Positions 22,910 through 31,497 of a stretch of 64,000 nucleotides of DNA are shown one piece after another; within the stretch, counting starts at the first letter, position 1, and every line of letters begins with the position of its first letter. This stretch comes from Kineosporia babensis (lineage in GTDB: Bacteria; Actinomycetota; Actinomycetes; Actinomycetales; Kineosporiaceae). Position numbers and translations under genes: made by a program. The notes under the pieces are model-generated. The model worked only from the letters and a program-made list of their open reading frames with translations, made no database searches and had not been told where the DNA came from. The stretch is from the NCBI RefSeq assembly GCF_021129305.1, contig NZ_JAJOMB010000004.1, positions 62,001 through 126,000 on the forward strand, in the 5' to 3' direction.

Positions 22910-23575
22910 TCAGTCGGCCAGGGTGATGCCGAGCTCATGCGCCAGACTCGGGGCCAGTGACGTGAGGTCCTGACTCTGCACGGTGGCCCCTTTGAGCCCG
23001 GTCACCCCGCCCACCCCGTCCAGGATGCAGTTCTCGAACAGTACGCTGCTCATCCTGGCGTTCGCGAACTGAGCCGCGGTCAGGTCACAGCCGGAGAAGC
23101 GCACGTGCGTCAACTCGGCCCACTGAAAATCGGCCTGCCGCAAGTCGCACCGCTCGAAGACCACCTGCCTCAGCTTGCTCTGCCGATAGCGCGACAGATC
23201 CATCCGACACTCGGAGAACACCAGATCCCGGAACAAGCCGTCGCTCCAGGCCGAGCCCATCAGCCGGCATCCCTCCAGACTGCTCTGCAGCAGCGAGACA
23301 TCGCGGCCCTGCACGTTGGCGAAGTCACACCGCTCGATCACGGCGTCGGAGATGATGACCTGCTCCAGCGAGGCATTGGACAAGCGCACCGCCTCCAGCC
23401 TGCTCTCCTCCACGTCGCAGGCGTAGATCTGCGCCCCGCTGAAGTCGGTGCCCTCGTAGAGCATTGCTTTCAAGGTCTTTTCGTCGGCCCACGCATCGTC
23501 GGGGATCGTGGCTGGAGTGAGAGCACGGCTGACCTGGGGCGGTTTGGGCTTGCGGAGGCGCGGGATCGTCGACAC
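22910..23575 (-). CDS. Pentapeptide-repeat protein
   Basis: About 221 residues. From residue 40 on there are tandem five-residue units with a hydrophobic centre, e.g. TDFSGAQIYACDVEESRLEAVRL, CDFANVQGRDV, CDLRQADFQWAEL and CDLTAAQFANARM, the right-handed quadrilateral beta-helix repeat. Some members mimic DNA and protect gyrase; this one has no specific evidence for that. GTG 23575 (MSTIPRLRKPKPPQ) is chosen over an upstream ATG at 23653, whose extra residues are not repeat-like. The 223 bp before it on the left (22687-22909) show no gene. Confidence 0.87.
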   Translation of the reverse strand: MSTIPRLRKPKPPQVSRALTPATIPDDAWADEKTLKAMLYEGTDFSGAQIYACDVEESRLEAVRLSNASLEQVIISDAVIERCDFANVQGRDVSLLQSSLEGCRLMGSAWSDGLFRDLVFSECRMDLSRYRQSKLRQVVFERCDLRQADFQWAELTHVRFSGCDLTAAQFANARMSSVLFENCILDGVGGVTGLKGATVQSQDLTSLAPSLAHELGITLAD

Positions 23576-23783
23576 GTCGCCGAGCCTATCGAGGGCCCGG
23601 GCCGGCCCTGCCCGGCCGAGCGGGTGGACACCGAGGTCACCGCCTTCGACCATGCCGCGATCGCCTCGACAGTCGCATCGGCTTTTCCGCTACTAAGCGG
23701 CTATAGTCAATCAGGGGCCGTCTTCCACCGGTGTCCCTATTGAGGGATCATCCAGCATTGGCTGAACTCGAGGTGAGGTACAC

Positions 23784-24086
23784 ATGACCATCCCTGTCAG
23801 CGCGACCTACCTGTCCATGGCCGATGCCCGGACGAATCTGCGCGAGTTGCTCGACAACGTCAAGGCTACGCACGCCCGCTACAGCATTACCCGCAACGGC
23901 GAGGTAGACGCCGTTCTCATGTCCGCGGACGATCTCGAGGCTCTGGAGGAGACCCTGGAGATCCTCAGCGACCCCGACGAGATTGCAGCCATTCGAGAAG
24001 GCCTCTCCGACATCGAAGCAGGCGACGTCTTCACCATCGCCGAGGTGCGCCGAGAGTTCGGCCTGCGCCCTACAAGATCGTTCTGA
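23784..24086 (+). CDS. Phd/YefM-family antitoxin
   Basis: 100 residues. The N-terminal half (ADARTNLRELLDNVKATHARYSITRNGEVDAVLMSADDLEALEETLEIL) is the Phd/YefM fold that binds the operator. The C-terminal tail (DPDEIAAIREGLSDIEAGDVFTIAEV) is the acidic part that normally wraps the toxin. A good ribosome site (GAGGTGAGG) precedes the ATG by 5 nt. A partner RelE/ParE toxin should follow directly, but only a decayed trace is seen, so this may be an orphan antitoxin. Confidence 0.9.
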   Translation: MTIPVSATYLSMADARTNLRELLDNVKATHARYSITRNGEVDAVLMSADDLEALEETLEILSDPDEIAAIREGLSDIEAGDVFTIAEVRREFGLRPTRSF

Positions 24087-24289
24087 CCGCTTCGGCGAAA
24101 CACGACCTGGTGGGAGCCCAGGCCCGGCAGCACGATGAGTCCTACCTTCGACGCTTCAACCGGATCTGCGCGATCCAGGACAGGACGGAACGTCGACTCG
24201 TCCCTACCCAAGTCTCCCTGGCTGCGCCACAATCCCCTGGCCGAACCTGCGCTTCAGCCAAGGCCGGTACCTCGTTCAGGAAATGGTGA
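24065..24289 (+). pseudogene. Remnant of a RelE/ParE-type toxin
   Basis: In the frame one base behind the antitoxin, translation gives PYKIVLTASAKHDL right at the antitoxin stop, the usual opening of a RelE-family toxin. The following residues no longer match the family, no start codon precedes this frame, and the reading ends at TGA 24287. A third frame (about 24233-24300) reads WPNLRFSQGRYLVQEM. Together this suggests a toxin broken by frameshifts. Only about 14 residues support the identity. Confidence 0.38.
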
Positions 24290-26126
24290 CTTTCCCGAGG
24301 TAGCGCACTTTTAGCGGTGGCAGGCGCTCAGCGGGCCTCAACGATCCACTGTTCTGGCGGGTCTGCCCGTAGTCATGAATGTTGATCAGTGAATCCTTTA
24401 CCGGACCGCGAGAGGGCCCCACGGGCATCGCCCGTTCGGGGACCATATAGATCCCGGAGGTGTGCTCGGCGATCAGAGTGCCGGCTCCCTTGGCCGAGCC
24501 CGGTGTTCCTGACCGCGATGGGTCCGCGTACGCCTGCGCCGAAAAGGTCATGACGGCAACGCCTGCTGCGGCAGCGAGACCAGCTTTCTGCATGACGTGC
24601 GGTGCGGCGGCTTTCATCGCGGTGAGCAGCGGGACCACGTTGCTCGTTGTGTTGGCGGCGGCCCCAGCTCCACCTAGTTGGGCCAGGGCCACTTCCTCGA
24701 AGGTCATGGCGACTGCGCGGCTTGCTGTCATGGAGGCTACGGCGCTCCCGGAGCTTGTCTCGACCAGCGCCTGGGGAAGGGCAGTTCGCCCAAGTGTTCC
24801 GATCATCTCCGCGCCGATGGTCTCGCCGGCGGTCAGCTCAGTGGCGATCAGGGCCTCTTCGGCGATCAATGCCTCGGCAGCGAGCAGGGCCGGCTCGATC
24901 GCGACCGCCAGGCCACCGGTGATGATCACTGGAACGAGCACCATGGCGACGCTCTTGCCAGGGTTTTCGTAGATCCAGCGGAGCACGGCGTCAGCGAACT
25001 CCTTGAGCCCAGGAATGAGCTCAGCGGCCAGGCGGGCGAACTCTTCGACCGGAACGATCACCCGCTGGATCAGGTCTGTTTTTCCCTGCCGTCCGGCGAA
25101 GAGCTCTGCCGAAGTCTCGGCCAGGGCCCGGATCTTGGCCCAGACCGAATGGACGGTCGGACCGTAATACGGCATGAGATGACGATAAGCGGCTTCGTCG
25201 CAGACGATGAGGAAGGTGTCGCCCGGATAGGCGGCCCCGCGCTGGAACAGCGACTCATCGATAGCCTGCTGGTAGGGCCGGAGTGCTTCGATCGCATCGA
25301 ACCGGCATTTGATCCGGGGGATCGGATCGCCTTTGTAGGAGGTGTCGCCCAGTTCCTCGAGTAACTGTTTGACCTGATCTGGAACCATACATCTGAGGTA
25401 TGTGCCCATGATGTGCTTGGCCAGGGCAGCTTCGTTCACCTTCTGAGTCTGCTCCTCCCGATAGCCGAACTCGACGCAGACTTTGTAGAGGAGCAGACCG
25501 TCCTGCGGCCGGGTAACCTTCAGCCTTACGTGAACAGCAGCGAGACCCTCTCTCGCGCAGAGTGTTCGACAGAAATTTCCGAACGCTCGGTCCCCGGTCA
25601 GCGGAATCCACACCTGCCGAAGAGCAGGATAAAGGCTGCCGGGTCGATAGGGCAGGGCGAACTGGTCGTAGATGCTCTTGATGTTCCTCAGTTTCTGACG
25701 GCCCCGATACCGGCCACCGTCCGAGCCGGGTTTGATCTCGTAGTACTCCTTGCGGTCGTAACGTCCTGGGGCGGCTGGAACGATCTTGCCGGTGATCAGG
25801 CTCAGGCGCCCCGAAAGGCCGTTGTGGGTCACGATGTCGGGCCATTGCATCGGCTGTTTCATCAACTGACTGAGGCTGACGTTCTGGTTGCGCTCACTGA
25901 GCATCCTGCAGTAAGCGCCCTTGCCGCCGTGATCCGGCCAATCGATCGTGTTCAGGCCTGGGGATGGAGGTGGCACTTCGTGGGTCATCATCACGTAGTC
26001 CCCGAAGATGACCTTTTCCGCCACCTCCAGACCGAAGACCGAGGTGGCGTTCATCTGCCCCTTGTCCTTGGTCACGTCGAAAATCTCACCGAGGACGTAG
26101 CACCCCTCGTACTTCTTCCTTTTCAC
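24276..26126 (-). CDS. Unrecognised 616-aa protein with PD-(D/E)XK-like motif and two hydrophobic segments
   Basis: I do not recognise the family. Residues 90-160 contain WPDIVT (Asp97), then YYEIKPGS (Glu130, Lys132) and a GRQKLRNI helix, an order like the Asp...Glu-x-Lys core of PD-(D/E)XK nucleases seen in toxin and tail-associated proteins. Residues 392-432 (VAMVLVPVIITGGLAVAI and an Ala/Glu-rich stretch) and 516-533 are hydrophobic and could be membrane-inserting or export-like. The tail is Pro/Gly-rich. GTG start with GGGAG about 12 nt upstream. The gene begins 45 bp after the 844-aa protein gene, so the two are very likely one operon. Function unknown. Confidence 0.8.
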   Translation of the reverse strand: MKRKKYEGCYVLGEIFDVTKDKGQMNATSVFGLEVAEKVIFGDYVMMTHEVPPPSPGLNTIDWPDHGGKGAYCRMLSERNQNVSLSQLMKQPMQWPDIVTHNGLSGRLSLITGKIVPAAPGRYDRKEYYEIKPGSDGGRYRGRQKLRNIKSIYDQFALPYRPGSLYPALRQVWIPLTGDRAFGNFCRTLCAREGLAAVHVRLKVTRPQDGLLLYKVCVEFGYREEQTQKVNEAALAKHIMGTYLRCMVPDQVKQLLEELGDTSYKGDPIPRIKCRFDAIEALRPYQQAIDESLFQRGAAYPGDTFLIVCDEAAYRHLMPYYGPTVHSVWAKIRALAETSAELFAGRQGKTDLIQRVIVPVEEFARLAAELIPGLKEFADAVLRWIYENPGKSVAMVLVPVIITGGLAVAIEPALLAAEALIAEEALIATELTAGETIGAEMIGTLGRTALPQALVETSSGSAVASMTASRAVAMTFEEVALAQLGGAGAAANTTSNVVPLLTAMKAAAPHVMQKAGLAAAAGVAVMTFSAQAYADPSRSGTPGSAKGAGTLIAEHTSGIYMVPERAMPVGPSRGPVKDSLINIHDYGQTRQNSGSLRPAERLPPLKVRYLGKVTIS

Positions 26127-26171: not shown

Positions 26172-28706
26172 TCAGGCCAGGTCGGTGAGCGGGGTGTCGA
26201 CGTGGATGTCCAGGGCGCTCGTGGGGGTGTACTCGAACCAGGTGGCCACCAGTGAGGCGCCGGCGGCAGATGAGATGTCGGCGTTCAATCCGGTTCCACC
26301 CTCGGCATTGTCGGCCCCCAGGGAGACGAGGTCGTAGTCGGCGCCCAGACCGGGCAGCGTGTAGACGAGTGGGTTGCCCCAGGCATCGACGGGTATGCCG
26401 CTGTCAAGTTCGGAAAGGGCCGTCGGATAGCGGCCGTTGGTGCTCTTGAAGGTTTCGATGTCGATCATGGCTTGCTGCATCGTGTCCCAGGTCGCGCGTT
26501 GCTCAGGAAAGACCAGGGGCCGGGCGTGTTCCTCAGGGTTCGCCGGCGGTACTCCCGCGTAGTTGGTGCGCGCAAAGTTGGCAATCTCCTGGGCGATGCT
26601 GACGTAGGGCGAGGAACCGAGTCTGCTCAGTGCCCCCGTCTCGAGCAGTTCGGTGAATTCCTCCTCGAAGCCCGGCCGGACCGGGAGTACGACCCTGGTG
26701 TAGCCGGCCCGCAGGAACCGCTCGTGCTCGGGATCAGGATGCTCGAACAGCATCTTGCCGCGTCCTACAGTCTCGGATCCCCAGAAGTAGGGGTAGAGGA
26801 AGTAGATGAGGTTCTCCCACTCCACCGCCTGGTGAATGAATTTCACCAGTTCCCCGAACAGCACGGCCTGCTCCCAGTGCTGTTCGCGAACCCCGGCGAA
26901 GGTCGGGTTCGGCCGGGCAGCATCTGAAAGACCTGGATTTCGCTGGAAGTCCACCTCGTTCTGCAGCAACCGGCTGACCAGGTCCTCGACGGCTCCTTCC
27001 GAGGCCACCGGGAAGTCCGGGCCCAGGAGCCACTGCATCACCAGGCGCAGGATCTCTTCACGTTCGAGCCGCCGGAGAGTGAGGGTGTCCTTCGCGTGCA
27101 GGAGGCGCCACAGAGTGTCCCGCTGCTCCTGAAGCACCGCAACGCGCTCCAGGTGGCGAGCTTCGGCTGCAGCCCGCAGTTGCTGCCAGACGGTCTGCTG
27201 CCATTGCCGGCGGGCTTCCTGGGTCAGGGTGTACTTCAGCCTGATCTCGATACTGCCCATACTGATGTTGGCATAGGAGTACACCACGGTCAGATGGCCG
27301 TACCGGCCGGCGAGGAAGGCCAGATTGCTGCGGACCACATCGTCGTCCGGGTCGGTGTCCGGGCCGCCTCTGATCACCCGCAAGAAATAGTTCGTATCGG
27401 CCCAGTGGGCGAAATCGGCCTGCAGCGTAGCGTTGGACGCAACTACGTATCCGGCGGGGACATCGAACTCGATCTGCCCGAACCGTGTGCGGACGGCATC
27501 CTTCCTATCGAGCCAGTCGATGCGGCCGTGCTTCATCTCTTCGATGGACTCGGCCGGGGGCGCCGGCACGCTCGTTCCCCACTTCCGGGCTTCCTGGTCG
27601 TAATTGGTCCAGTTGATGTCCTTCGGTTCCAACGGGAACTGCAGCGGCTTACGGATCTCCTGCTCGATTCCAGCCAATTGCTGGTGCAGGGCCCACAATC
27701 TGACGCCAGGAGCGGGAATGGCTATGTCGTAGGTCTGCCGGAGGCCGTAGCGGAAGAGATCGGTGCGCCACTTACGCATCATCCGGTAGTAGTCGATCCG
27801 GATCGGGGTCGCCGCCGGGTTGGTGATGGTCTTGCCCGACTGCTCTTCCACCCCGGATTCGGTGACGATCTTGACCGAGACCTTGTGTTCCTTACGGGTG
27901 CGGGCCGAGGCTTTCTCGGTGAGTTCGCGCTTCTCCTGCGCAGACCGCTTGACCGACTCGCGTTCCTCCCCGGTCCGGGTGATCCCGAGCGTGGTCGTCA
28001 GGGTGACCCCGACGTAACTTCCGGAGAGTGACGACCCGAAGGTCAGGCCGTTCGTGCGCTTGGCCTCGTTCTCGCTCGATATCGAGGCATCGACGGTCTC
28101 AGCCACACCACGTTCGCTGTAGGACTCGAAGTAGTCCTGGACGACGTCCTCGAATTCCCTGCTGGAAGCGGACCATTCCTTGTGGGCGATGGTGACGCTC
28201 TCCCCCGGCGCCATCGGCACGGTGAAGACCAACTCGCCCCGCTGCACGCCGACTGGGTACATCTCGATGCGCTCCAGATGAATCCGCCCGATCGGGGAGA
28301 TCGTACGACGCATACTGTTCAGCCTCAACAGCCTTCGGGCCGAGCTGGCCTTGCCCGGATTCGCCCTCTCCAGCAGGGAAGTCAGCAGGTCGAAGGCTGC
28401 GTACGGCACCGAAGCCAGCAGCGGTGCCGTATCGAGCCCTTCACCGGGGCGGTCCGAGGCCGCCAGCCTGCGGGCCGTGGTGAGGAGCTCCTTCAGGGCA
28501 GACGACTGGTGCGCCACCCTGGACTCGCTCAGGGCCTGCTCGAGGCGCTCGAGGTCATCGGACGTCAGACCGATAGCCCGCAGCAAATTGAGCTTGACGA
28601 AAGCCCCGCCCGACTCGGCTTCGGCCTTCTGCTGTTCCTCCGGCGTGAATTTCGTCAGCACGTACGAACCCGTGAACAGGAGTCGCTTGCTATTGGTCAG
28701 ATCCAC
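26172..28706 (-). CDS. Unrecognised 844-aa protein with C-terminal GspG (T2SSG)-like domain
   Basis: Most of the protein is unfamiliar. Residues about 180-260 hold a Ser/Gly/Thr-rich strand-like stretch (LTFGSSLSGSYVGVTLTTTLGI) followed by a charged helix; residues about 480-560 are helical and Arg/Leu/Glu-rich. Residues about 739-813 read like the globular domain of type II secretion pseudopilin GspG: FKSTNGRYPT, VDAWGNPLVY, YDLVSLGADNAEGG and ADIS, with the Asp residues of the calcium loop. There is no prepilin leader or N-terminal membrane helix, so it is not a pilin. GTG 28706 is chosen for a perfect GGAGG 7 nt upstream; ATG 28757 lacks one. First gene of a two-gene operon. Confidence 0.85.
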   Translation of the reverse strand: MDLTNSKRLLFTGSYVLTKFTPEEQQKAEAESGGAFVKLNLLRAIGLTSDDLERLEQALSESRVAHQSSALKELLTTARRLAASDRPGEGLDTAPLLASVPYAAFDLLTSLLERANPGKASSARRLLRLNSMRRTISPIGRIHLERIEMYPVGVQRGELVFTVPMAPGESVTIAHKEWSASSREFEDVVQDYFESYSERGVAETVDASISSENEAKRTNGLTFGSSLSGSYVGVTLTTTLGITRTGEERESVKRSAQEKRELTEKASARTRKEHKVSVKIVTESGVEEQSGKTITNPAATPIRIDYYRMMRKWRTDLFRYGLRQTYDIAIPAPGVRLWALHQQLAGIEQEIRKPLQFPLEPKDINWTNYDQEARKWGTSVPAPPAESIEEMKHGRIDWLDRKDAVRTRFGQIEFDVPAGYVVASNATLQADFAHWADTNYFLRVIRGGPDTDPDDDVVRSNLAFLAGRYGHLTVVYSYANISMGSIEIRLKYTLTQEARRQWQQTVWQQLRAAAEARHLERVAVLQEQRDTLWRLLHAKDTLTLRRLEREEILRLVMQWLLGPDFPVASEGAVEDLVSRLLQNEVDFQRNPGLSDAARPNPTFAGVREQHWEQAVLFGELVKFIHQAVEWENLIYFLYPYFWGSETVGRGKMLFEHPDPEHERFLRAGYTRVVLPVRPGFEEEFTELLETGALSRLGSSPYVSIAQEIANFARTNYAGVPPANPEEHARPLVFPEQRATWDTMQQAMIDIETFKSTNGRYPTALSELDSGIPVDAWGNPLVYTLPGLGADYDLVSLGADNAEGGTGLNADISSAAGASLVATWFEYTPTSALDIHVDTPLTDLA

Positions 28707-28760
28707 GGCAGGGCCTCCGGAGAACAGGGACGTTGACGGAAAGCTCACCAACTGCACACG

Positions 28761-28797: not shown

Positions 28798-31497
<2,700 letters not shown>

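What the first reader, a model, noticed from the sequence alone, without database searches (positions are those of the whole stretch)
26172..28706. GspG-type pseudopilin domain fused to the end of a large non-pilin protein
The last ~100 residues of the 844-aa protein reproduce the globular domain of type II secretion GspG (NGRYPT, DAWGNP, YDLVSLGAD with EGG, ADI), including the calcium-loop Asp residues. The protein has no leader peptide or N-terminal hydrophobic helix, and no other type II secretion gene is seen in the window. The other ~740 residues match nothing I know. A detached pseudopilin fold on a large protein suggests calcium-dependent assembly or a targeting tag in an undescribed system.
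Basis: partly seen in the sequence, partly recalled or inferred. Interest (0 to 1): 0.85.

Follow-up and report, generated by a model that had tools for sequence, protein, structure and literature searches.

The report
Toxin-carrier-like protein with captured pilin domain
A piece of a secretion-machine pilin has been built, as a swappable block, into a large protein that faintly resembles pore-forming toxins and usually lies next to one of many exchangeable proteins, some of them toxin-like enzymes, which suggests an uncharted family of two-part bacterial toxins.

Summary

Best reading: carrier half of a two-gene polymorphic, binary-like toxin, with GspG as a captured docking module. Pore formation, delivery and the role of GspG are inferred.

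The parts
26172..28706 (-). Carrier protein A, 844 aa, GTG start
   Evidence: Open frame, GGAGG at 28714-28718; family tree of 87 rows
28305..28706 (-). A residues 1-134: predicted mostly helical N-terminal region
   Evidence: AlphaFold
27714..28292 (-). A residues 139-331: long beta strands around a low-confidence middle; possible aerolysin-like module (weak structural support)
27972..28064 (-). A residues 215-245: nearly uncharged, Ser/Thr/Gly-rich stretch, candidate membrane hairpin
   Evidence: Holds the 26-mer with fewest charged or polar residues of the whole protein in the all-rows, EYTP and short averages; beta periodicity not significant against permutation
27222..27554 (-). A residues 385-495: jelly-roll-like beta sandwich (common fold)
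26664..26840 (-). A residues 623-681: family signature FxxQAxEW...YPYFW...DP...FLxAG..RVV..R.GFE
   Evidence: invariant or nearly invariant columns of A1 and A2
26253..26513 (-). A residues 732-818: inserted GspG globular domain
26175..26252 (-). A residues 819-844: conserved tail shared with relatives that have another insert or none
24276..26126 (-). Partner protein B, 616 aa, GTG start 45 nt after the stop of A
   Evidence: homologues beside or near A in nine loci counting the window
25731..25841 (-). PD-(D/E)XK-like motif of B: P96-D97 ... E130-I131-K132
   Evidence: P96, D97, I131, K132 invariant in 9 of 9 aligned B proteins; position 130 is E, or D in L024
24897..24953 (-). Hydrophobic segment of B, residues 392-410
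   Evidence: KD mean 2.39

Best explanation
A is the constant carrier half of a two-gene polymorphic toxin, working like a binary toxin. SHOWN: the family is widespread and its tree cuts across phyla; its core has no family model; a partner gene usually lies beside it and is exchanged freely; some partners carry known toxin or effector domains; the GspG domain is a true fold at an insert site that holds another module in sister proteins. INFERRED: the long-stranded module (139-331) with the uncharged 215-245 stretch forms a beta-barrel pore of aerolysin type; the beta sandwich and the C-terminal insert bind the target surface or stabilise the assembly; the pore carries or admits the partner (here B, perhaps a PD-(D/E)XK nuclease). 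GspG, a calcium-stabilised fold in known homologues (recalled), would have been captured from a diderm T2SS and reused as a rigid docking module. How A and B leave the cell is unknown.
Confidence: 0.47

Rival explanations
1. A and its partner are an intracellular defence pair: A senses phage or another invader (beta sandwich and GspG parts as sensors) and releases the partner, which kills the cell.
For: Nuclease-like, patatin, PLD and membrane-segment partners also occur as effectors of known defence systems (recalled); no N-terminal hydrophobic helix in A; the Aulosira locus lies beside restriction-modification genes.
Against: No PADLOC match for A or B; among five relatives only a Csx3 match at E 0.02 in L080. 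Arginine deiminase, Rv2525c-like hydrolase and PT-TG neighbours fit delivered toxins better; pore-former-type fold hits, though weak.
Confidence: 0.18
2. A is an adaptor or cargo of a contractile injection system, and the partner is the injected effector.
For: Sheath domain PF04984 in 9 of 24 searched handles, including the window's own genome; toxin-like partners.
Against: No sheath match in the other 15 handles, which are 14 genomes because Phycicoccus was entered twice (G165 and L037); one of them, G089, has only a weak A match. No sheath found near A, but that test had only four sound queries.
Confidence: 0.15
3. The GspG domain is a tag that sends the protein through a type II secretion system.
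For: True GspG fold; 4 of 16 fusion genomes have secretins and 3 of these also a free GspG.
Against: In 12 of 16 fusion genomes, the window's included, no secretin and no other T2SSG domain was found; relatives without the domain keep the same kind of gene pair.
Confidence: 0.04
4. A and its neighbour are unrelated genes that happen to be adjacent; A is an ordinary surface or storage protein.
For: Function of A is untested; partner calls are approximate; some matched neighbours look like housekeeping genes (PPK2, Amidase, Mur ligase).
Against: Tandem arrangement in most loci examined, recurring partner families across phyla, B beside A in both gene orders.
Confidence: 0.15

Closest known systems
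GspG/EpsG/PulG major pseudopilin (Pfam PF08334)
   Different: No N-terminal hydrophobic helix; embedded near the C-terminus of an 844-aa protein; below the GspG equivalog cut-off; no secretin found in most host genomes
Aerolysin-type and Tpp pore-forming toxins (8bad, 7y79, 3am2, 5ec5, 5jzh)
   Same: Very long beta strands flanking an uncharged Ser/Thr/Gly-rich stretch; 15 of 21 rows (6 of 12 proteins) of a weak list of structural neighbours
Polymorphic toxin systems (PMC3482391, seen as listing and start of abstract only)
   Same: PT-TG, PLD, patatin and deiminase domains among partners; constant part with exchanged part
   Different: Constant and variable parts are separate genes here; no immunity gene recognised; no known trafficking domain matched
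Binary toxins with separate carrier and enzyme (recalled)
   Same: Two-gene logic, carrier with a possible pore-former module
   Different: About 27 partner families and interchangeable C-terminal inserts; no sequence kinship shown
eCIS-associated toxins (PMC8213781, PMC11297309; passages read)
   Same: Environmental hosts and partly similar effector types
   Different: No contractile sheath found in 14 distinct genomes out of the 24 handles searched

Membership tests
T2SS pseudopilin GspG | GspG globular fold | tested here: met
T2SS pseudopilin GspG | N-terminal leader and hydrophobic helix | tested here: not met
   domain at residues 732-818; the most hydrophobic 19-mer has a KD mean of 1.41
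T2SS pseudopilin GspG | equivalog score | tested here: not met
   38 of 88.85 bits
T2SS pseudopilin GspG | T2SS in the genome | tested here: not met
   no secretin match in G000, 99.27% complete
Aerolysin-like pore-forming toxin | fold of the pore-forming module | tested here: inconclusive
Aerolysin-like pore-forming toxin | amphipathic membrane hairpin | tested here: inconclusive
   least polar stretch, but periodicity not above permutation
Aerolysin-like pore-forming toxin | oligomeric pore | not testable with these tools
   needs protein
Polymorphic toxin system | conserved part with exchanged toxin part | tested here: met
   27 families in 74 partners; unrelated partners at 82.7% core identity; that most partners are toxins is not shown
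Polymorphic toxin system | known toxin domains | tested here: met
   PT-TG, PLD, PAD, patatin in part of 79 neighbours; none recognised in the window's own B
Polymorphic toxin system | immunity gene | not tested
   no systematic search made
eCIS effector or adaptor | contractile sheath in the genome | tested here: inconclusive
   present in the window's own genome on other contigs, no match in 14 distinct genomes of 24 handles
PD-(D/E)XK nuclease (protein B) | PD ... (D/E)XK motif | tested here: met
   9 of 9 aligned B proteins
PD-(D/E)XK nuclease (protein B) | fold or profile match | tested here: inconclusive
   no Pfam or credible PDB match; profile comparison with two other nuclease-like partner sets not significant; B not folded
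Anti-phage defence system | match to a known defence protein | tested here: inconclusive
   no PADLOC match for A or B; the library is of 2023 and a missing match excludes nothing

The most novel reading that the evidence does not exclude
A cross-domain class of polymorphic binary toxins: an aerolysin-like carrier, unnamed in the family databases searched, delivers any of dozens of partner proteins and swaps C-terminal docking modules, one of which is a type II secretion pseudopilin captured from diderm bacteria and now used in bacteria that have no type II secretion.
Probability: 0.32. Interest if true: 0.92.

Novelty: new variant of a known kind. Interest (0 to 1): 0.72.

Why it matters
It would add a large unannotated carrier family to microbial conflict, give a lead on hundreds of 'hypothetical' gene pairs from Actinomycetota to archaea, offer a way to find new effector enzymes (whatever lies beside A), and show a pilin-type secretion domain reused as an interchangeable module outside any secretion machine.

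Tried and rejected
Assembly error or truncated gspG: rejected, since the same fusion occurs in 16 genomes with conserved flanks. A candidate further GspG fusion (L020, 606-aa frame) is an ordinary gspG in a pseudopilin cluster whose frame runs on upstream. Family models: apart from GspG, A has no Pfam, NCBIfam or PHROG match above chance level; the selected relatives have none over a cut-off either, except T2SSG twice in L034. The first genome scan, with the single sequence, confirmed no relative among 22 pattern matches; the alignment scan found 329. The two viral-contig relatives were used in alignments but their contigs were not studied. Kinship of B with two other nuclease-like partner sets by profile comparison: not significant. 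PDB profile search with B: chance-level matches only. Beta-hairpin periodicity: not above permutation. Sheath near A: none found, but four of eight query frames were picked wrongly, so the test is weak (one search failed). Foldseek 'pdb' and 'viral' searches never started, so only the two pdb_via results exist. Structures of residues 496-720 alone and of B: not predicted (cap reached). Literature: searches listed no paper recognisable as describing this gene pair or such a GspG fusion; only listings, one outline with abstract (PMC13277306) and passages of two papers were seen, in an open-access library, so absence there proves little.

Rows dropped or doubtful: the A tree (87 rows) leaves out duplicates and partial copies (L001, L002, L011-L014, L016-L019, L021), L015 (weak match), L020 (no match), the split gene L005, and truncated L057, L059, L092. 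Insert types were set by text patterns; L052 and L060 are unsure. In the 79-protein Pfam set at least L004, L032, L038, L039, L042 and L063 were entered with a wrong frame or side (compare), so its counts are rough, and some hits (PPK2, Amidase, LtrA, Mur ligase) are doubtful partners. The 42 loci leave out L029 and L057 (no room downstream) and include truncated L059. In one search four of 42 loci (L041, L045, L046, L051) gave no downstream ORF. The set took the choices (38), replaced the ORF of L022 by its B homologue, and added the window's B and 35 of 44 short-type neighbours; families are by single linkage at E 1e-3 and approximate. L005 and L013/L017 show A split over two frames; neither was mended.

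Full report
WHAT IS THERE. The reported interval is one gene on the minus strand. A frame is open from 28820 to 26175; a GGAGG lies 7 nt before the GTG at 28706, so the likely product, A, has 844 aa. Its stop is followed 45 nt later by the GTG of B, 616 aa, 26126-24276. The window is contig 34, 62001-126000, of a 9.4-Mb genome with one copy of A. G097, listed as of the same family, has a contig of the same length (206123) as the one holding L023, titled Kineosporia, so the host is probably in Kineosporiaceae (inference).

IT IS AN INSERT, NOT A TAIL. In relatives the same place, between 'TNYxGIPPANP' and a terminal 'AxLxxxWxEYTPTSxxDI', holds GspG (18 of 103 ORFs, 16 distinct genomes), an unrelated beta-type module (22 rows) or no recognised module (5 rows, L052 and L060 unsure). 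These 43 rows are one side of a fully supported branch (SH-aLRT 100) of an 87-row tree; the other 44 have a different, shorter C-terminus. The GspG label needs 4 changes on the tree, 3 if only starred branches count, so gain, loss or exchange happened more than once. In Desulfobacterales L034 the module is duplicated in tandem. The tree cuts across phyla: the window's nearest row is a Methylobacter, next a Paenibacillus.

NO TYPE II SECRETION NEEDED. Of the 16 genomes with the fusion, 12 have no secretin match, and in those 12 the fused module is the only T2SSG match; three of the four with secretins also have a free gspG-sized frame, the fourth has none. Completeness is known only for the window's genome (99.27%); several of the others are metagenome assemblies. 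In most hosts the domain thus seems to work without a T2SS. I infer capture from a diderm gspG followed by spread.

THE CARRIER FAMILY. A scan of genome contigs with alignment A1 gave 339 pattern matches, of which 329 encode relatives (80 kept); viral contigs gave 2 of 22. Hosts include Actinomycetota, Bacillota, Pseudomonadota, Bacteroidota, Cyanobacteriota, Chloroflexota, Acidobacteriota and the archaea Methanosaeta, Methanoperedens and Natronorubrum. With the single sequence, 6 of 248 genomes of the window's order matched, its own included, and 4 of 396 in the phylum sample, of which one is the window's own and one (L020) an ordinary gspG. Apart from the GspG domain no library searched has a model of it.

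THE PARTNER GENE. In 7 of 7 annotated plasmid loci a same-strand gene follows A (in L005 A is in two pieces, in L008 a small ORF comes first, and L005 and L010 are close relatives). Of 42 EYTP-type loci, 33 have a coding-like frame (third-position GC above second) open within 100 nt downstream; three Micromonospora loci have B directly upstream of A. I grouped 74 partners into 27 families by single linkage. Exchange is fast: L063 and L038 share 82.7% of the carrier core but have unrelated partners; 9 of 12 pairs at 80-90% core identity share a partner family, 7 of 19 at 70-80%, 6 of 58 at 60-70%. Of 79 proteins scanned (B and 78 neighbours), Pfam recognises PT-TG in 6, PLD in 3, PAD in 2, patatin in 2, and single Rv2525c-like, PhoD and calcineurin-like matches; at least 53 have none. 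By eye, from recalled motifs, others look like L,D-transpeptidases (L004, L038), alpha/beta hydrolases (L043, L044, L063) and papain-like enzymes (L040, L056).

PROTEIN B. Homologues of B occur beside or near nine GspG-type carriers including the window's (L011 and L023 are one genome; in L022 B lies about 3.8 kb away). All nine aligned have PD ... (E/D)IK with a downstream Lys, the PD-(D/E)XK pattern (recalled); a hydrophobic stretch follows. No profile or PDB match supports the nuclease reading.

RIVALS. A contractile-injection role is possible in some hosts, but 15 of 24 handles (14 genomes) have no sheath match. A defence role is not excluded: PADLOC finds nothing for A or B, and the Aulosira locus lies beside restriction-modification genes, but deiminase, Rv2525c-like hydrolase and PT-TG neighbours fit delivered toxins better. 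Papers on eCIS toxins (PMC8213781 and PMC11297309, passages read; PMC13277306, abstract read) do not, in what I read, describe this pair.

VERDICT. On rechecking I lowered two odds slightly (best explanation 0.50 to 0.47, novel case 0.35 to 0.32) because the structural hits are redundant.

Noticed in passing
29530-31497 +: Divergent neighbour: GH5 cellulase with fn3 and a CBM3 cellulose-binding domain.
   Followed up: no
22910-23653 -: Pentapeptide-repeat protein about 0.6 kb beyond the end of B.
   Followed up: no
23784-24086 +: Small ORF that looks like a Phd/YefM-type antitoxin (recalled resemblance, not searched), opposite to B.
   Followed up: no
L034:3512-7003: Tandem GspG modules, one whole and one partial plus an extra helix piece, in one carrier (Desulfobacterales).
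   Followed up: partly
L003, L004, L038 and other beta-type carriers, last ~130 residues: An unrelated Val/Thr-rich beta-type module at the same insert site, without Pfam match in the member tested, L038.
   Followed up: partly
L003:1-7904: The Aulosira carrier lies downstream of restriction-modification genes on a plasmid.
   Followed up: no
G000:C23 and C18: The window's genome has three contractile-sheath matches on other contigs.
   Followed up: no
L102, L103: Two IMG/VR viral contigs carry relatives of A.
   Followed up: no
L005:9479-11844: In Sinorhizobium K101 the carrier is split into two frames, while Sinorhizobium C101 (L010) has it whole.
   Followed up: no
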